A DNA stretch of 64,000 nucleotides. Origin: Riptortus pedestris (taxonomy: Eukaryota; Arthropoda; Insecta; Hemiptera; Alydidae). Where the stretch lies: assembly GCA_019009955.1 (NCBI GenBank), contig CM032231.1, forward strand, positions 106,942,001 through 107,006,000, given 5' to 3'. How positions within the stretch are numbered: the first letter of the stretch is position 1; every line of letters starts with the position of its first letter. The translations under genes were made by a program, and so were the position numbers. Of this stretch, positions 2,987 through 54,200 are shown in pieces. The notes below the pieces were generated by a model. It saw only the letters and a program-made list of their open reading frames with translations, was not told where the DNA came from and searched no databases.

Positions 2987-5900
2987 TCATGATGGAGGTA
3001 CATTCTGAAACAAACCAAAAATATTTTAAAGACTATTTAAAATGTTTATCTGCTTCTACACTCAACCGCAAAAAAAAAACCGGACACTTAGATTTAGTCT
3101 TATAATTTTGTTAAATACTTAATATATATGTATATTAATCTTTTTAATTAAAATAATTGGTTAATCTATATGTTATTTAAATAAAATCTGCCAAAAGTGA
3201 ATAATTTTTATTGATTATTTACACAAAAATACAAAATAAAAAAAAATAAAAAGATAAATTAAGACATTTAAAAAAAAAAAATTATTCTTCAGTGAATGGT
3301 AGACTTCGCTACCCCAAGCGTTTCGGCAATGTAACGTAAGCTCCGGCCTTCCATCTAAGTTTGAAAGACCCATTATTCTGGACCGAAATAAAAATAAAAC
3401 ATTAATTAAAGAAAATGCTTGGTTAATAATTAAAGATGTTTAAATGTGCGAAAAACTACTTAAAGTTTAGAATAGATCAACTTCACGACAAATAAATCTA
3501 ATCTGAGTTTTATCTAATTGTTTAATAATCCTGAAGGGATTAGCTCAATGGACTTAGACTCTAAATTCTCTGTAATAACTAGAATACCCACATAAAGAAA
3601 ATTAGCTTTTAATACGACAAAAATGAAGTGTCCGGTTTTTTTTGCGGTTGAGTGTATTTATAATGAGCTATCTAAATCAATTCTAGTCAAGACAAGAGGC
3701 AAAGAGCTTTATTTAGTGAATAGGAAATAATATCCACAGCTCTCTTGATAGTTGATCCTAAGACCCCAAGTTCAATGTGAGCCTGAAAATCATTCACTTT
3801 GGCTGTAACTTAACACATGGCTATAGGTAGTCTACAATTAGAAATTCTAAATATAAGCATATCAATATTATAAGTGGTGGCAGTGGTTGTAAAGTGGATA
3901 TATTTTTATTAGAAAATAGATTTTCATCATCACTTAGTCCTAGATAATTAGGCATACATATAAATTAAAAGAACTTCAACAAAACAATATAAATTCAAAT
4001 ATTTACTCTATTATTATTCATATTTTAGAGGAAAAAATGGTATTTTGATTACAGTTAAAAAAAAAAAGTTGCTCGGCATTTACAGTGTGTTATTTGAATA
4101 TAGCTCTACATGTTTCAAATGCCAGGAACTTAAATTAAATTACACTTACTAACTTCACATTACATAGTGCAGTCTGCATTCTCCCAAGAATTTTATCAAC
4201 AATAAGGTCCAATAAAAGTCCGTCACGCAGGGGCTGCGTAAACTAAGCAGATTTCCCACATGAAGTTTTACAATAGAGAAATTTCACGAGCCGTACAGTT
4301 ACGGAAAGGGCCGAACTAGTTATTGACGGAAACTCATGACTAGTACTGAAGTTAGCTGATCTCATCTCGTCCGTTATCTGCATACGATTAATAAAATGCA
4401 AATATCTCGGTTAATATTCAAGATAGGGAATAAATATATATATATATAACAATATTTATAGTAAATGTAATTTGCAATAAGATTCTATACAATTTTTCAT
4501 ACAATAAGATCCGACACATAGTAACGGAGATATTTCGGATTTTCAAAATTCCCCCCCTTCCACTGGTCTGATTTCAGCCATTAACAAACTTCATCTTTTT
4601 TTACATAAACCGTAAAATATTGAGTTTGGTAACAATCAAGTAAAAATTGTGACTGCTAGAGTGTTAACAGACAAATATATGTATATTTTATATGTATAAA
4701 ATTTTGAACAGACCTCATTTTCGTCATCTCCTGATAGTAGGATCGATGGCATTTGAAAAAAAAAAATTATGAAAATCACGTCATGAGTACTTAAGGGAAA
4801 TCTGCTAAAATTCGACATGCATTATTTGATAATAGGAATGCCAATCTGATTTACAAACAAAATTACATAGTAAGATGTATAAAACATAGAGCTATGTTGC
4901 AATAAACAGTTTGAATAAGTGTTTAATTTATTGGTCTCTTGGCTAATCATCTTTGAGAATACGGTAGGTACTTGGTGTTATTCTAATGATATGTTGTTTT
5001 GTTCTTTGATAAACAAAAGTCCTGTCCAAAGAAAGAAATTTTAGTTAAGAATTATTTTTTTTTGCAATTGCAGTTAGGTATTAAAACAAAAAAAAAGCTT
5101 ACAATACGAAGAGTTGAGCAGCACAAGGAAAAATAATTGCTTCTTGGAGCCCTTAGTTCAAGCCATTGTGTTTGGTTAGGAACATACATTTCTGGTGGCA
5201 TTCGGGTTGGTGAATTTTCATTTTCATCTGCACAAAATAAATTTTGAAGTGTTTAAATAGATTAATTCTTTTTTAGCTGTTTCATAGTAATAAATTCAAA
5301 ACGTAAAAATATATAAGTTTTGGTCAACAATGATATTCAAGAATGCATATTTTACCCTTTCCTAAACCTCTAGTCCTCCTCGTCCGGTTTTGCCCATTAA
5401 CAAACTTAATTTTTAGTGATTTAATTCAACATTCAGTAGGTCTGCTCCAGCAGAGCTGCTTACAGAAGTCTAGCTCTGAGGATGGTAGTATTAAACAAAC
5501 AAAAGCAATAAGCAATATCATTTATAAATTAAGAAATCACAGTTTTTTTATTTCCTTTAGGGCATCTTGAGGATAGAATGGTCATTGTTTAAGTCACATT
5601 GAGAATTTATTCTTATAGGAAAGGTCAGATGATAACAGTACAATGTATTTAAACTTAAAATAAAATGTTACTTGGTATATTTATTTAATGTCAATGTGAT
5701 ATGAGTAGAAGAGAGTGCTTTCTGAAGCCAAAAACAAAGTGTCCAAATAATTATATTATTATTGAAAGTTAGAGAAAAAAGTACGCAACAGTAATTATAG
5801 AATATTACATCTGCATCATGATTGGTTATATAACAAAGAGATTTCAAAATTTTATTTTATCCCTCCTCTAAACAAATTGATTTTATCCACTCGTCCAATT

Positions 5901-8003
5901 ACAGTTAAAAACAGACTTCAACTTGATCTTTAGATAGATAGATAGATATTTTATTGGCTTATGTTTACAACATGTTGCCAAGAGTCCGGCCAATTCTCCA
6001 AGTAAAGTAGATATACTTAAAATATTCATCAAATCCTAAGTAAGATCATTAGAAATTTGAAAACAATTCTCAAAAATCATGTCATTGGTACAACCGCAGC
6101 AGAAGATTTTGCTAAAGTAAAATGCTACTAATGAGGAGTTTGAACGATGTGAAACCAGTAAATAAACAATTAATAAGTGAAAAAAAGAATTTTGACCTTC
6201 CCAGAACCCTTAAAAAAACTTTTTATCACTACATAGGTATTATTCATACCTTGGTATTTCCTGATGGTTTTATCTACCATTGGAATTCTGTGCCCAGGCT
6301 GAGAGAGAAGCAGTCTTCCTACTCCTTCACATCTCCGAAGCATCTCCGTTGATAAAAGATTTGGAGTAGCCTCGACTCTTTCCATCAGCCAAGTTGGAAC
6401 AGCTCCAAAATCGGCCAATAATTGCAGAGCTCCCCATTCCCTGGAATAAAATATTGTAGTAACAGTTTTACTTCTGTTTCATTATTTATAATTATTATGC
6501 CATTAACTTTAGTTAAGGTTCATAATCTGAACTGGCAATGATAACCACTGTTGATGGGTTAAATTGTGGCCCATTTGTGATACTTAAATAACAATATTTT
6601 ATTGGAGTACATCAGCAGATTTCTGCCCTGTAAGATCTTTCTTGAAAGGTCCTAAGCTATGAAGATGACATTGTAAATTGCTGATAGCACTAATCGTTTA
6701 TAAAAATATTTTTTTATGAGCTACAAAATTGTTTTTTGATAAACCTGATTCATTACCTTCACGACCAGCAGAAATAATAATGAATGAACTATATTTTCCC
6801 CATATCTAATGTCAGACTAAGGTTTGTATGGAGCTGCTTAGACCACAAAGGTGGTTAATTAAACACTAGTTTCAAGACAATTAATTAATTAAATTGAGCA
6901 CATTTAATTTTAGAGTTAAAAAAATTTCTGTAATTCTGTGTATAATTCACCAAGCTTGTTTTATTATACATGCAATTCTTGACTTGCTTTTGGCTAAGGA
7001 AAATGTGACTTCCTTTACTCAATGACTGGGACAATTCAAGTTCGGTTAAAGAGTTTCTGCACCTATAAATACTTGACATAATGTCTCTCTTTTTATCTTA
7101 AGCAAATATCAAATAACATCATTCGTTACACCTCATAGAGTTCTGTTCATTCTGCTCATTCACACCATGCAATTCATTCACTTGATGATAACAGTTTTTC
7201 TTGTCAGGAGTTAGAAAAAAGTATTGCGTTAATCCTTCATCAAAATTTTACAACTTAGTGAGACCTTATTTTCATCGTTAATTGGACCTTGTTCTTCCAA
7301 ACATTGGGAGGGTCTCTTTTTCTTCAACTGCTGAGAGTTTTAAAATTATCAGATCTAATTCTGGTTTTAATTTTGTAAAATATTCTTTTAAGTTCATTCC
7401 CATAAATAAGATATGTTTGCTTAGCATTCCTTGTTTTAATAACCACAACTATTGCACTGGAATTCAATAAATATTCAATATAATACATAGTCATACATAT
7501 TTTTGAGCTGTCTTTTGAAAACGTGATCAATGATCTATCATCTAATGATGACTATGTGATTCCTACTAAAGTAGTCTCGGTTAACTATAGTTTTGGAGCT
7601 TCAGTTCATAATTTTTCAAAAGGAATTACTGAAAGATGGCTTTCCACAAGGAAATAAACTATATTGAATTAGACTGATTCTTATGTTTTGGTTGCCCTGT
7701 AAACTTGCTAATGTAGTGATGTTAAAAATTAAAGAAAAAAGTATTACTAAATTACTGCAATGAAAATCCATTGAATTTTATTATTATTACTTACGTGAAC
7801 TTTATTTTATTTTTGTAGATATGATCCAACCAAGCTTCACACATTATGTCAAGAACTAAGCAAGAAACCTTTTGCTGTACAGGATTCTCCAAAGCTTTAG
7901 TTGCATTAATAACAGGCTTCAGAACTTCTTCTGTAATAAAAAAACAAAAATTAATAGCGAAACCTAAATCAAACCAAATGATATATATATATATATATAT
8001 ATA

Positions 8004-34015: not shown

Positions 34016-34147
34016 CCTGTTTGTTAGCAGATTTCCCTTACGGGAAATCAGCTATTGAGGTTGTACTCATGACGGAATTTTCGACATTTTTCTTCAAATG
34101 TCCATCAATCCTACCTAGTAGATGACGAAAATGAGGTCCGTTCAAAA

Positions 34148-34222
<75 letters not shown>

Positions 34223-34225
<3 letters not shown>

Positions 34226-35502
34226 TCAACCGCAAAAAAAACCGGACACTTCATTTTTGTCGTATTAAAAGCTAATTTTCAGCTATTTTCTTTATGTGGG
34301 TATTCTAGTTATTACAGAGAATTTAGAGTCTAAGTCCATTGAACTAATCCTTTCAGGATTAGTTAACAATTAGATAAAACTCAGATTAGATTTATTTGTC
34401 GTGAAGTTGATCTATTCTAAACTGTAAGTAGTTTTTCGCACATTTAAACATCTTTAATTATTAACCAAGCATTTTCTTTAATTAATGTTTTATTTTAGCA
34501 GATTTCCCTTAAGGGAAATCAGCTATTGAGGTTGTACTCATGACGGAATTTTCGACATTTTTCTTCAAATGTCCATCGATCCTACCTAGTAGATGACGAA
34601 AATGAGGTCCGTTCAAAACTGTATATATATATCTATATATATATATATATATATATCTATATATTTGTCTGTTACCGCTCTAGCGGTCGCAATTTTTGTT
34701 TGATCCTTACCAAACTTCATATTTAAGCGTTTTATGTAAAAAGAAAGATCAAGTTCGTTAACGGCTGAAATCGGATCAGTGGGAGGGGGGGTTTAGAGGG
34801 GAGGATTTTCGAAAAATCGAAATATCTCCGTTACTATACGTCGGATCAAAAGAGTGTATAGAACCAATCTTATTGCAAATTAAATTTACTATAAATATTG
34901 TTCTATACATTAATTCTCTATCTTGAATATTAACAGAGATATTTGCATTTGTATTCTGCGTGTCACCAATAGGCTATGTTCGGAGTTTCCGACGAGAGCT
35001 CTGGTGGCCGTTTCTATAACTATCGTCTCTCGTGAATCGGTTTAGAGGTTAGGTTAACTGTTAGAAACTACTGGGTTATTACGCCCTAAATAATGTTTTA
35101 GGTTTAGAGGTTTTTTACTACTACAGTTGTTATTAGGCAGATTTCTCTATTGTAAAACTTCACGGGGGAAATCTGCTTAGTTTACGCAGCCCCTGCGTGA
35201 CGGACTTTTTATTTCGGTCCAGAATAACGGGTCTTTCAAACTTAGATGGAAGGCCGGAGCTTACGTTACATTGCCGAAACGCTTGGGGTAGCGAAGTATC
35301 CCATTCACTGTAATAAAAATTTTTATTTTGTATTTTTGTGTAAATAATCAATAAAAATTATTCACTTTTGGCAGATTTTGTTTAAATAACCTATAGATTA
35401 ACCAATTATTTTAATTAAAAAGATTAATATACATATATATTAAGTATTTAACAAAATTATAAGACTAAATCTATGTGTCCGGTTTTTTTTTGCGGTTGAG
35501 TG
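34223..35502. mobile_element. Tc1/mariner-type MITE, filled-site copy
   Basis: It has the same inverted ends as 3059-3654, in opposite orientation, and a TA duplication at 34221-34222 and 35503-35504. Removing the internal element H (34497-35209) leaves about 570 bases aligned to the other copy throughout. It sits in the microsatellite of a larger element H. Confidence 0.88.
34497..35209 (+). mobile_element. Element H, full length, nested in the MITE
   Basis: It starts AGCAGATTTCCCTTAAGG with the perfect 20-bp palindrome, has a (TA)n tract with CTA breaks (34623-34662), GTTACCGCTCTAGCGGTC, the core with AACGGCTGAAATCGGATC and a G run, and a 3' part ending GGGAAATCTGCTTAG, ACGCAGCCCCTGCGT hairpin and GACGGACTTTT. 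The host copy at 3059-3654 gives the empty site: five T's become four T's before the element and the remaining T after it, so no target duplication is needed. Confidence 0.85.
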
Positions 35503-36187
35503 TATATATGTATATCTATCTATATATTTGTCTGTTACCGCTCTAGCGGTCACAATTTTTGTTTGATCGTTACCAAACTCGATATTTAGTCGTTTTATGT
35601 AAAAAGAGAGATCAAGTTCGTTAACGGCTGAAATCGGACCAATGGGAGGGGGGGTTTAGACGGGAGGATTTTCGAAAATTCGAAATATCTCCGTTACTAT
35701 ACGTTGGATCGAAAAATTGTACAGAATCAATCTTATTGCAAATTAAATTTACTATAAATATTGTTATATACATTTATTCCCTATCCTAAATATTAACCGA
35801 GATATTTGCATTTTTATTAAATTTGGGCCGGTAACGGTTTTTTGAATTTCCCGCCAAAAGTTAGTTCGGCCCTTTGCCGTAACTGTTTGGCTCGTACGGA
35901 GATTTCTCTATTGTTTTAAATTTACTATAAATATTGTTCTATACATTTATTCTTTATCTTGAATATTAACTGAGATATTTGCATTTGTATTCTGCGTGAG
36001 CTCGGCAGCAGTCTATGTTCGGACTTTCCGCCGTGAGCTCTAGCGGCCGTTTTCGCAACTATTCGTCCCTCGTGAATAGGTTTAGAGGTTTCTTACTACA
36101 ACAGTTGTTATTAGTCAGATTTCTCTATTGTAAAACTTCACGTGGGAAATCTGCTTAGTTTACGCAGCCCCAGCGTGACGGACTTTT

Positions 36188-36677
36188 TGTCTGTTACCGC
36201 TCTAGCGGTCGCAATTTTTGTTTGATCGTTACCTAATTCGATATTTAGTTGTTTTATGTAAAAAGAAAGATCAAGTTCGTTAACGGCTGAAATCGGACCA
36301 GTGGGAGGGGGGGGGGTTTAGAGGGGAGGAGTTTCGAAAATTCGAAATATCTCCGTTACTATATGTCGCATCGAAAAAGATTACAGAATTAATCTTATTG
36401 CAAATTAAATTTACTATAAATATTGTTCTATACGTTTATTCTGTATCTTGAATATTAACTGAGATATTTGCATTTGTATTCTGCGTGTGCTCGGCAGCAG
36501 TCTATGTTCGGACTTTCCGCCGTGAGCTCTGGCGGCCTTTTTTGCAACTATTCGTCCCTCGTGAATAGGTTTAGAGGTTTCTTACTACAACAGTTGTTAT
36601 TAGTCAGATTTCTCTATTGTAAAACTTAACGTGGGAATTCTGCTTAGTTTACGCAGTTCCTGCGTGACGGACTTTTT
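36188..36677 (+). mobile_element. Element H unit joined head-to-tail to the previous copy
   Basis: Directly after GACGGACTTTTT of the preceding unit the sequence resumes with GTCTGTTACCGCTCTAGCGG and runs through the same core to a 3' end at 36677 (ACGCAGTTCCTGCGT hairpin). It lacks its own 5' palindrome and TA tract, so it is a partial tandem unit. Confidence 0.8.
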
Positions 36678-37814: not shown

Positions 37815-38527
37815 AGCAGATTTCCCTCAAGGGAAATCAGCTATTGAGGTCGTACTCATGTGGCGATTTTCGAAAAATTTCTTAAATGTCCATCGATTCT
37901 ATCTACTAAATGACGAAATCCGAGGTCCGTGTGGTCCGTTCAAAATTGTGCATATATATATATATATATATATTTGTTTGTTATCGTTCTAGCGGTCGCA
38001 ATTTTTGGTTAATCGTTACCAAACTCGATATGTAAGCGTTTTATGTAAAACTTAAGATCAAGTTCGTTAACGGCTGAAATCAGACAGGGAGGAGGGAGGG
38101 GGGTATAGAGGGGATGAATTTCGAAAGTTTTTAATAACTGCGTTATTATGCGTCAGATCGAAAAATTTGTGTAGGGGCATTATTATTGTAAATGTAATGT
38201 TCTATAAATGTTCTTATGCATTTTTTTTTATCGTTACGAAACTCGAAATTTAGTCGTTTTATGTAAAAAGAAGATCAAGTTCATTAACGGCTTAAAACGG
38301 ACCAGTGGGAGGGGGGGGGGTTTAGAGGGGAGGATTTTTTAGTTTTCGGCCTTCAGTAAACCCCCTCCTACTCATGTCATATAAACAATAAGCTGGTATA
38401 TGAAGTACATCATTAGAAGCATTAATGCGAATTATTGTTCTAACGAAAATTTTACTTTTCGAGATAAATGCAAACACATGGCACACATGGGAAATCTGCT
38501 AAGTTTGCGCAGCCCCTGCGTGACGGA
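37815..38527 (+). mobile_element. Element H, both ends present
   Basis: The 5' palindrome variant (GATTTCCCTCAAGGGAAATC) is at 37818-37837, then the GTCGTACTCATG block, TA tract (37950-37972), TCTAGCGGTCGCAATTTTTG, two partial cores, and the 3' end GGGAAATCTGCTAAGT, GCGCAGCCCCTGCGTGACGG. The second partial core begins at about 38230. Confidence 0.8.
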
Positions 38528-38699
38528 CATTTCGTCTCCTGGCTAGGACCTATGGACATTTGATGAATTTTTTCGAAAATCGCGTCTTAATGGAAATCTT
38601 CCATGAGTAGTCGGGGTAGAGTTACTGAAGGCTGAAAACAAGAGAGTACGAATAAATCGTTTAATACTTGAGTTACGAAAAATGCATAGGATAAAAATT

Positions 38700-50623: not shown

Positions 50624-51199
50624 ATGAGCTGGATCGAGAGGATCTGGAGAAGGACGGTGAGGGCTTTCCGGAGGAGGCCTTCACCAGCACCCCCTCCACC
50701 TCCCCCACCGCCTCCTGTATACTACTATCCAGGTAATCAAACTAAACAACATTTTAGAAAAAAAAAGTCCGTCACGCAGGGGCTGCGTAAACTAAGCAGA
50801 TTTCCCACGTGATGTTTTACAATAGAGAAATTTCACGAGAGCCGAACAGTTAAGGAAACGGCCGAACTAGCTTTTGGCGGGAAAGGCACTCGTCCGTTAG
50901 CCGCCCAGATTTAATAAAAATGCAAATATCTCGATTAATATTCGAGATAGAGAATAAATGTATATAACAATATCTATAGTAAATTTAATTTGCATTAAGA
51001 TTAATTCTGTGCAATGTTTTCATCTGACGTATAGTAACGGAGATAAATCGAATTTTCGAAAATCCTTCCCTCTAAACCCCCCCTCCCTCTGGTCCGATTT
51101 CAGCCGTTAACGAACGTGATCTTTCTTTTTACATAAAACGACTAAATATCGAGTTTGGTAACGATCAAACAAAAATTGCGACCGCTAGAGCGGTAACAG

Positions 51200-51271
<72 letters not shown>

Positions 51272-54200
51272 TATGTGAACGGACCTCATTTCCGTCATCA
51301 ACTAGGTAGGATCGATGGACAAAAATTTCGAAAATTCCGTCATGAGTACAACCTCAATAGCTGATTTCCCTTAAGGGAAATCTGCTAAAAACATAAACAG
51401 TTTAAGGAGCTTGGATTGATTATTGATATACATTTCACAACAACAAAAAAACCGGACACTTCATATTTTATATTTAAAAAGCAGATTATCTGCATTTTGT
51501 TTCTTTTTGTGGGTGATCCAGTTAATCCTGAGTATGCACGGCCACTGCCTATTGAACTATTCCCTTCAGGATTAACAGGGCACGAAATAAGGCTCTCATT
51601 TGTCTGGAGATTGCGTTACGTGACTCTACTCTCCTAAACTGTAAAGTAGGTTTTTACACCTTTGAGAGTGTTTAGTTTTTTAACAAAGCGTTTACACTCA
51701 TTATTGGACGTTGCATTTCCCTTCAAGTCTAGGAAAATTGTTCTTTCGGCATTGGATGTAGCCCGGTCTTGATGCCTTGGCAAGGGAAGGCCGGAAGTTT
51801 CGCTATATCGCCCAAACTCTCGGAGTGACAAAATCTACTAGCCATGACGCACTCCGGTGTTTGGAAGAGACTGGGAGTTATGGGCAGAGTGTCGGCAGTG
51901 GCCGTCTTAGTTTTGAGAGACAGGCTTTTAACCGCTCCTGGGGTTCAGGTGAGGCTCCAAATCGCCCGAAATATTGTCGTCAGCTCGGACATCATATGAT
52001 GGAGGCTGAGGGAGCACGGTCTTCAAACGGGCGGCACCCTGCGTCAAGGGCCCAACTCCTGAAAATACATCAAAAGGAAAGACGGATATTTGCTGAACAA
52101 CGGACAGAGGAACAATGGACAGCTGCTTTATTCACAGATGAGTCTAGATTTGGTCTGTATCTGTCGTACGGTCGAGTCAGACTGTGGAGACGACCAGGAG
52201 ATCGTTTCGCTCAATGTACCTCTTCGCGAGTCCCGGCCATTCGAAATGCGATCAGTTATGGTTTGGGGTGGAATTAATATTCATACCAGTAGCGAGATGA
52301 TTTTTCTTGATGGATAGAATGGAGGTCTGACTGTTCGGAGGTACATTCAGGAAGTGCTTCAAGAGGCTGTAATCTCATTTGCTACATTTATTGGTGACGA
52401 GTTCATTTTAATGCAGGATGATGCTTGCCCGCATACCTCAAGAATTGTCACCGAATACTTGGAGCATGGTAATCACAGTTCTGGACTAGTATGCATGATC
52501 TCCCGATATGAATCCTATACAGCATTTTGTGGGATTATTCAGGGAGGTGTGTTAGGCGTCGTCATCCTCCTCCTAGTGATTTAAACCAGCTCCACAATGC
52601 TCTTCGTGAAAAGTGGGATGTTGTGCCGGTGGAGGATATCAAAAATTTAATTTCTTCGATGCCTGACAGAATAAGGGCCCTTCACCATGAAGGGGGGGGG
52701 GGATAATACCCAATATTAGAAGGCCACCCGAAAAAAAAAATAAAAATGTTAAAATTATGAATTATTAGAATTGTATTGTATACGACTTTCGAAACATTTC
52801 ATCAAATGTCGATCCTACCCATGAGATGACGAAAATGAGGTAAATTCAAAATAATACATATGTAGATCTATATATGTATGCACAAAAATATTAATCGTGA
52901 TGTTTGCATTTTTTTAATTTTCTTTATTCAGAAAACCTCCACTTTTAGTCTTCTCACGTTAAAAATAAGCCAAGTATATCATGATACGTCTTACTCCACG
53001 CTTAAATACCGAACATTGTTTCCAACGGACTTTTGCAATGTGAGATACATTCAAATACGTTATGTGATTGCGTCATTAATTAAAATATGTTCTTGAATTG
53101 GAAATGTTTCATGATCTATACTGTACACTATAATTAACCGTTTTATTCAATACTATAGATCATACTTGAATCTCTTGGCTGGTGGGGGTAGATGTATAAA
53201 TCCATGGTTGAAAAAAAAGAGTTAACACCTGCACTAGGTTACAAATGTTAATTTCAGAGCCAGATTTCGAGGCCCTACCTCAACATCAGTTCTCTTTCTC
53301 TATATATAGGCGATGTTGACTGGCTCCTGCTTCTGAGTGGGAGATCTCTGTTATTATGTGTGGGATTGAAAAATGTTTGTCACTTTTTCCCGGAAGAATT
53401 TTCATCCCGGTCTCTCTTCCGATAAAATTTATTTATTTTATTATTTATTTTAATCTGTATTCTTATATTATTAGGATATTCATGGGGGTTCTATCGGTGA
53501 TATAAGTAAGAGCTATGTTATATCGTTTTCAAGAAGGACTCGACAATTCCACCCCCTCCTTGTTTTCTGTTCCATCCGCTAGGATTAATCTATTTTATTG
53601 CTAATTTTCTACCGCTGTCTTCTTCATGCGATCCAGTAGATTTCAGGTTTTTCCCGCTGGAGCGAGAAAAAATTAAATTGTAAACAAATGTATGTTGCAT
53701 AGGAGTTAAACCAAAAACTGCATTGTGGGATGTAATTAAGTGTTAGGAAATAATTATTCATATTTGTAACATACTAATGATTCAACTGAAAATTTCATCG
53801 AAAATCGGATACCAAAATATCACAACTATTGTTAAAAAAAGTCTTATAAAAATAAATTGTTAAAAATGTTAAAATTTATAATGCAACAAATATGAAGTGT
53901 CTAGTATAATAATTAATGATCAGTAAGATCGTGTGAGATTTATTTTTCTATTAATTTTTAACCACCTATATACATTTATCACGTTTGTCACAGCAGGAAA
54001 TAACACTATGGATATTCTCAACAAAAAAAATCTTTCTTAAGAATATTTAAGAATAAATAGGTTATACATAGAAAATGTAATTTTAAAAACTACACTTCGA
54101 AGGGTTCACAGGCTATGAATTTACTTTAATAGATCAAAACTTCATATCATTAGAGAAGAAATTATCACTGAAAGGTTTTACAGAGGAATGAAAAATTCTT

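What the first reader, a model, noticed from the sequence alone, without database searches (positions are those of the whole stretch)
34497..35209. Empty and filled insertion sites define the ends of a Helentron-like element
The same MITE is present without (3059-3654, opposite strand) and with (34223-35502) a 713-bp insertion. The empty site GTTTTATTTTTATTTCGG becomes GTTTTATTTT, then AGCAGATTTCCC...GACGGACTTTT, then TATTTCGG. So the element starts AGCAG, ends in CTTTT and inserts between T's without target duplication. HLE2/Helentron-type rolling-circle elements are known to do this.
Basis: partly seen in the sequence, partly recalled or inferred. Interest (0 to 1): 0.8.

Follow-up and report, generated by a model that had tools for sequence, protein, structure and literature searches.

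The report
Helentron-derived mobile element with deubiquitinase-carrying partner
A short, gene-less jumping element inserted itself into another mobile element at a run of T's; its ends match those of a large rolling-circle transposon in the same genome, whose single protein joins the usual copying enzymes to a probable ubiquitin-removing enzyme.

Summary
A TA-flanked MITE occurs empty (3059-3654, minus) and filled (34223-35502) with a 713-bp element H at 34497-35209. The Helentron reading is supported. H has no ORF over 44 aa inside it, a palindromic 5' end, an exact 12-bp subterminal inverted repeat and a 3' hairpin. Its 27-bp 5' end has 37,483 exact genome matches, 0 for the reversed control. 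The MITE site alone cannot separate "no target duplication" from a TTTT duplication; other copies can. In 4 of 40 copies the left flank is TATT or ATTT and the right is still TTTT, so no 4-bp duplication. The autonomous partner was found: an element of at least 10.3 kb on contig C50 shares H's last 44 bp exactly, and its 5' leader continues into an H-type terminus in another copy. Its 2,430-aa ORF has Rep, PIF1 helicase, an endonuclease-like region and a C-terminal USP-type domain. OTU and VTD deubiquitinases are described in Helentrons; five searches aimed at a USP showed no report. Similar USP domains occur in a springtail, two scale insects (one partial) and an unnamed JGI sequence. H is an ordinary HINE; the USP-bearing partner is the new variant.

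The parts
34497..35209 (+). Element H: non-autonomous Helentron-derived element (HINE), 713 bp counting the terminal TTTT
34497..34524 (+). 5' terminal palindrome AGCAGATTTCCC-TTAA-GGGAAATCAGCT; its first 12 bp are the 5' asymmetric/subterminal inverted repeat
   Evidence: (first 70 bases fold as DNA with z -3.5)
34622..34664 (+). internal TA-rich microsatellite
   Evidence: self-matches
35166..35177 (+). 3' subterminal inverted repeat GGGAAATCTGCT, exact reverse complement of the first 12 bp, 32 bp from the 3' end
35184..35198 (+). 3' hairpin ACGCAG-CCC-CTGCGT, 11 bp from the 3' end
   Evidence: (last 70 bases fold with z -2.1)
35199..35209 (+). 3' terminal GACGGACTTTT
34223..34496 (+). left part of the host MITE (TIR CACTCAACCGCAAAAAAAACCGGACAC, TA flank)
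35210..35502 (+). right part of the host MITE
3059..3654 (-). same MITE without H (empty site)
34026..34222 (+). 5' part of an older H-family element into whose TA microsatellite the MITE inserted
35503..36187 (+). rest of that older H-family element, ending GACGGACTTTT
50763..51386 (-). another H-family element with both ends (624 bp), TTTTT|AGCAG ... GACTTTT
4214..4806 (-). another H-family element with both ends (593 bp) and a different middle, TTTT|AGCAG ... GACTTTT
37815..38532 (+). another H-family element with both ends (718 bp), TTTT|AGCAG ... GGACATTT

Best explanation
H is a HINE, a non-coding derivative of an endonuclease-bearing rolling-circle transposon (Helentron). Shown: it inserted into a T-run inside a MITE; other copies sit directly after TTTT or, less often, TATT; no 4-bp target duplication is made; both its ends occur on copies of a Rep-helicase element of the same genome that also has an endonuclease-like region and a USP-type domain. 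Inferred: the partner's Rep nicks at the 5' end, helicase-driven rolling-circle copying runs to the 3' hairpin, pairing of the 5' and 3' inverted repeats marks the stop, and the endonuclease cuts the T-run so that the single-stranded copy joins without duplication. Also inferred: the USP domain removes ubiquitin, possibly protecting the transposition protein or altering chromatin.
For: Empty/filled sites: the MITE (2 empty copies) and paralogous empty sites for L020, L022, L025, L028, L030, L032, L040 and L046 (L046 ambiguous by one T; L018 and L033 unusable). Flanks of 40 copies. In 65 distinct 5' ends and 81 distinct 3' ends in hand: left TTTT 54 and TATT 7 of 65; right TTTT 69 and TATT 0 of 81 (Fisher p 0.003; ends not paired). 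Genome count: TTTT precedes 28,817 of 37,483 exact 5' ends, 76.9%. Partner: the C50 copy ends with 44/44 bases of H 670-713; three more loci with its 3' UTR (L086, L087, L089) carry the 40-base end with one change each, and L071 carries it unchanged. Its leader (C50 1-926) continues in L074 at 95% into TTTTT|AGCAGATTTCCCTTAAGGG, with H 1-168 at 92% and H 126-459 at 85%. ORF domains. Hairpins.
Against: No partner copy with both termini on one fetched stretch was seen: C50 starts inside the H-type leader, and L074 was fetched only around the leader. H's 5' module is 85-92% identical to the partner's, so the partner that last moved H may be a closer, unseen copy. H 460-669 has no clear match to the partner in hand. 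Pfam did not score the endonuclease in the query itself, and a single-sequence fold of it was unusable (mean pLDDT 41). Two partner 3' ends continue GTTG and TTCG instead of TTTT, and of the 14 stretches scanned L092 and L095 showed no such end. In most copies TTTT on both sides is also what a TTTT duplication would look like.
Confidence: 0.93

Rival explanations
1. H is a cut-and-paste DNA transposon derivative that duplicates a 4-bp TTTT target.
For: Most copies read TTTT[AGCAG...GGAC]TTTT, and at the MITE and L040 exactly four T's were gained.
Against: In 4 of 40 copies the left four bases are TATT or ATTT and the right ones TTTT; left TATT 7 of 65 versus right TATT 0 of 81; at L032 the paralogous empty site is CTATTTTAAAT and the filled one CTATT[H]TTTTTTTTTTAAAT. 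The inverted repeats are asymmetric (0 and 32 bp from the ends) and the partner encodes Rep-helicase.
Confidence: 0.03
2. H is a canonical Helitron (HLE1) mobilised by one of the Rep-PIF1 families without a detected endonuclease (L068, L069).
For: Both families are present. The L069 type has 13 rows of equal PF14214 score with open frames of 791-1844 aa. H-like stretches occur in 3 of the 20 Rep loci held as L048-L067: an H-like 5' end fused to a Rep fragment in L050, and H-like 3' parts 1.1-2 kb downstream of the Rep domain in L053 and L062.
Against: H does not begin TC, end CTRR or insert at A|T. In L068 and L069 no H-type pair of ends was found: BLAST of H found nothing in L068 and only an H 5' fragment in L069, which spans a whole tandem period; the motif scan covered the gene strand only and gave one 2-mismatch 5' motif in L068. 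With tens of thousands of H-family copies, nearby insertions are expected.
Confidence: 0.03
3. H spread as part of the MITE or by segmental duplication.
For: One MITE copy carries it.
Against: Only 5 of 780 pairs of H copies resemble each other in both flanks, and two of three MITE copies seen lack H.
Confidence: 0.01

Closest known systems
HINE / DINE-1 (non-autonomous Helentrons; PMC4067079, passages read)
   Same: Palindromic 5' subterminal repeat, 3' subterminal repeat and 3' palindrome, microsatellite in some copies, insertion in T runs without detected target change, variable number of T's, autonomous Rep-Hel-EN partner with the same ends. Identity to the partner of 85-92% falls in the 84-99.9% given for the mite family.
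   Different: The repeat lies 32 bp from the 3' end (38-60 in mite HINEs); >95% identity to the partner is stated for the Culex HINEs.
Helitron2 with asymmetric TIRs, Helitron-1N1_CRe (PMC3627910, abstract and passages read)
   Same: 5' ATIR within a 5' hairpin, 3' ATIR just upstream of the 3' hairpin, insertion right after TTTT, no duplication.
   Different: Helitron2 is said to lack the endonuclease (PMC4067079, passages); the partner here has an endonuclease-like region.
Helentrons carrying VTD or OTU deubiquitinases (PMC9741609, passages read)
   Same: A deubiquitinase-class domain encoded with Rep, helicase and AP-type endonuclease.
   Different: Here the domain is USP-type (Pfam UCH, PF00443) at the C-terminus.

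Membership tests
HINE / Helentron (HLE2) | no long coding capacity in the short element | tested here: met
   longest ORF fully inside H is 44 aa; a 63-aa one runs out into the MITE
HINE / Helentron (HLE2) | palindromic 5' (sub)terminal repeat and matching 3' subterminal repeat | tested here: met
   12/12 exact
HINE / Helentron (HLE2) | 3' palindrome near the end | tested here: met
   ACGCAG-CCC-CTGCGT ends 11 bp from the 3' end
HINE / Helentron (HLE2) | insertion in T-rich / TT target | tested here: met
   36 of 40 copies after TTTT, 3 after TATT, 1 after ATTT; 76.9% of 37,483 exact 5' ends after TTTT
HINE / Helentron (HLE2) | no target-site duplication | tested here: met
   0 of 4 informative copies repeat their left tetramer; L032 empty site. 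A TT duplication cannot be excluded
HINE / Helentron (HLE2) | autonomous partner with Rep and helicase sharing the ends | tested here: met
   the two ends were seen in different copies
HINE / Helentron (HLE2) | AP endonuclease fused C-terminal to the helicase | tested here: inconclusive
   query region not scored by Pfam or by phmmer against PDB (one hit at E 0.49); its homologous region in P0001 scores PF03372 at 5.7e-9; N37, E64-T65, G172-D173-N175 and H233-P235 invariant in 6 rows (catalytic roles recalled); lone fold unusable
Canonical Helitron (HLE1) | 5'-TC, CTRR-3', insertion between A and T | tested here: not met
TIR cut-and-paste MITE | TIRs at the extreme ends and fixed-length duplication | tested here: not met
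USP-type deubiquitinase (partner's C-terminus) | USP sequence family and fold | tested here: met
USP-type deubiquitinase (partner's C-terminus) | catalytic Cys, His and Asn/Asp in place | tested here: met
   SCYAN, SGHY, ANDT/TNDT in both copies (roles of the motifs recalled); activity not testable here

The most novel reading that the evidence does not exclude
[quoted passage not shown] That would mean rolling-circle transposons repeatedly recruit unrelated deubiquitinases because transposition needs that activity, and this genome's tens of thousands of HINEs are products of such a USP-bearing machine.
Probability: 0.5. Interest if true: 0.6.

Novelty: new variant of a known kind. Interest (0 to 1): 0.42.

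Why it matters
H alone is ordinary: another HINE family, though very abundant. The useful part is that the partner is in hand, with termini linked to H, and carries a USP domain. Helentrons were already known to carry OTU and VTD deubiquitinases; another unrelated class in the same kind of protein suggests that removing ubiquitin is a recurrent need of rolling-circle transposition, and gives a testable handle on why. The TATT-site copies also answer, for this family, the target-duplication question that T-runs normally hide.

Tried and rejected
Considered and rejected: a 4-bp TTTT duplication; canonical Helitron ends; the L068 and L069 Rep families as partners (an absence in the stretches read, not a proof). 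The 20 Rep loci held as L048-L067 were first screened for H ends; H-like stretches in L050, L053 and L062 were set aside as chimera or nearby insertions.

Led nowhere: phmmer of the endonuclease region against PDB; single-sequence fold of that region (mean pLDDT 41); VIA-align on the joint model lists only USP-family chains, or complexes that hold one, and says nothing about the endonuclease part. Of 11 empty-site cases drawn, two (L018, L033) aligned too poorly to use and L046 is ambiguous by one T. Genome-wide counts of TATT before the 5' end and of the 3' end with TTTT or TATT after it were asked for and never answered; so was a search for COX1 (PF00115) meant to place the species, which stays unidentified. 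In the tree whole homologues were aligned with the query cut to residues 641-1860; 1884 columns filled in at least 60% of rows were kept, quick search, no mixture model, and the endonuclease columns were not taken out. DUB labels came from the Pfam domains listed, except P0001 and P0008, labelled USP from the alignment (Pfam does not score USP in either; P0001 lacks the C-terminal His part); unlabelled rows may carry unscored domains. The 45 homologues were chosen by hand from 123 listed; one search found 836 matches. USP needs at least 3 changes on that tree (2 forced by well-supported branches; shuffles as low in 25 of 500), which may be one gain and losses. Of the paper searches, the ten papers listed (of 91) hold no mention of Helitron, so it adds little.

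Changed on rechecking: flank counts restated as pairs, the unmatched part of H corrected to 460-669, the L053/L062 H-like stretches added, search counts narrowed.

Full report
Observation. Window 34223-35502 (+) and 3059-3654 (-) are the same MITE, with near-identical TIRs of about 27 bp and TA on both sides. The first holds 713 extra bases, 34497-35209. The joined flanks match the empty copy at the junction except for the T count: 5 T's when empty, 4 left and 5 right when filled. A second empty copy, seen over 151 bp, lies in L006. The window lies in an unnamed 1.08-Gb genome in 138 contigs.

Anatomy of H. The first 28 bases form a palindrome, AGCAGATTTCCC-TTAA-GGGAAATCAGCT; the first 70 bases fold as DNA with z -3.5, the last 70 with z -2.1. 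Bases 35166-35177 are the exact reverse complement of the first 12. They precede the hairpin ACGCAG-CCC-CTGCGT and the tail GACGGACTTTT. The longest ORF inside H is 44 aa. A TA microsatellite lies near base 126-168 of H.

Family size. One search reported 3785 candidate places and scored 40, each full length or one base short. I fetched flanks for the 39 other than the window's. With the microsatellite masked, mean pairwise identity of the 40 is 99.0%, range 96.6-100%; as the best-scoring copies they overstate similarity. Only 5 of 780 pairs resemble each other in both flanks, all among L012, L020, L022 and L046. The exact 27-bp 5' end occurs 37,483 times, and 0 times when the pattern is read backwards. 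This count includes related subfamilies. At about 0.7 kb each this would be roughly 2% of the genome, an inference that ignores truncated copies.

Target. In the 40 copies the four bases left of H are TTTT in 36 (L014 counted despite a mutated first base), TATT in 3 and ATTT in 1. The four right of GGAC are TTTT in 39 and TGTT in 1. Over the 65 distinct 5' ends and 81 distinct 3' ends in hand, left is TTTT in 54, TATT in 7 and other in 4; right is TTTT in 69, TATT in 0 and other in 12 (Fisher for TATT p 0.003; ends are not paired and include older subfamilies). Genome-wide, TTTT precedes 28,817 of 37,483 exact 5' ends. Of 11 loci compared with paralogous empty sites, the gain of T's was 4 for the MITE, L040 and L030, 3-5 by paralogue for L028, 4-5 for L046, 5 for L020 and L025, 6 for L022 and 7-8 for L032 (two loci unusable, and the T-runs of paralogues may themselves have changed). 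L032 is the informative one: empty CTATTTTAAAT, filled CTATT[H]T10-AAAT, so the TATT on the left was not copied to the right. No 4-bp duplication is made; a TT duplication cannot be excluded.

Partner. PF14214 hits in the genome fall into at least three groups. Two families (L068, L069) showed no H-type pair of ends in the 9.5-9.9 kb read. H-like stretches do lie in 3 of the 20 L068-type Rep loci, L050, L053 and L062, which I read as nearby insertions or a chimera. The third group, on C50 and C1, has one ORF of 2,430 aa with DUF6570, Helitron_like_N, PIF1/AAA and a UCH-class domain. In C50 the element ends 44/44 identical to H 670-713, and a C1 copy matches 40/40. Three other loci with the same 3' UTR carry the 40-base terminus with one change each (L086, L087, L089). 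Two of these ends continue GTTG (L071) and TTCG (L087) rather than TTTT, and L092 and L095, of 14 stretches scanned, showed no such end. Upstream, C50 31-358 matches H 126-453 at 88% and the sequence runs to the contig start. In L074 the same leader (C50 1-926 at 95%) continues into TTTTT|AGCAGATTTCCCTTAAGGG, with H 1-168 at 92%. Thus both H ends belong to this element, though seen in different copies.

Literature. PMC4067079 (passages read) describes HINEs with palindromic subTIRs, 3' palindromes, T-rich targets, no detected target modification and variable T numbers. PMC3627910 (abstract and passages) describes Helitron2 with 5' hairpin and asymmetric TIRs, and Helitron-1N1_CRe inserting after TTTT without duplication. 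PMC9741609 (passages) reports VTD and OTU deubiquitinases in Helentrons. Five searches aimed at a USP in Helitrons listed no title or abstract start that reports one; I did not open the other papers listed, one search added little, and the library holds only open-licence papers.

Mechanism. Shown: site, ends, lack of 4-bp duplication, shared ends with the Rep-helicase element. Inferred from what is known of Helentrons: Rep nicking, rolling-circle copying to the 3' hairpin with ATIR pairing as end signal (suggested in PMC3627910), and cutting of the T-run by the endonuclease. The USP's role is a guess; PMC9741609 suggests protection of transposition proteins from degradation for the VTD case.

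Nesting and age order. The MITE itself sits in the TA microsatellite of an older H-family element, 34026-34222 plus 35503-36187. Order: older H-family element, then MITE, then H. This is inferred from nesting.

Noticed in passing
window 36186-36676: A 5'-truncated H-family copy starts directly at the 3' end (GACGGACTTTT) of the older element 34026-36187, a head-to-tail arrangement; L039 shows a complete H directly after another H 3' end.
   Followed up: partly
L069 (G000:C2:72442000-72451900): A second Rep-helicase family lies in tandem with a period of about 8,688 bp (99.9% identical over the 1,213-bp overlap); 13 rows of equal PF14214 score suggest recent activity; an H 5' fragment sits inside it.
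   Followed up: partly
L068 (G000:C1:225888000-225897500): A third Rep-PIF1 family (1,127-codon open frame) with, by eye, a probable intron upstream of the Rep domain and no endonuclease among its Pfam hits.
   Followed up: partly
L050:1370-1486: An H-like 5' end is fused directly to an internal piece of the L068-type Rep gene.
   Followed up: no
L071, minus strand, 6283-6458 and 7380-7545 of the reverse complement: After the partner's 3' end comes an inverted copy (84%) of part of the downstream leader region, and the end reads GTTG instead of TTTT; possibly a rearranged tandem joint.
   Followed up: no
L086 3' end and L032: An autonomous partner copy and an H copy seem to have inserted at similar positions of the same repeat (flank ...TTTCAGGCCTCC / ...AATTCAGGCCTCC).
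   Followed up: no
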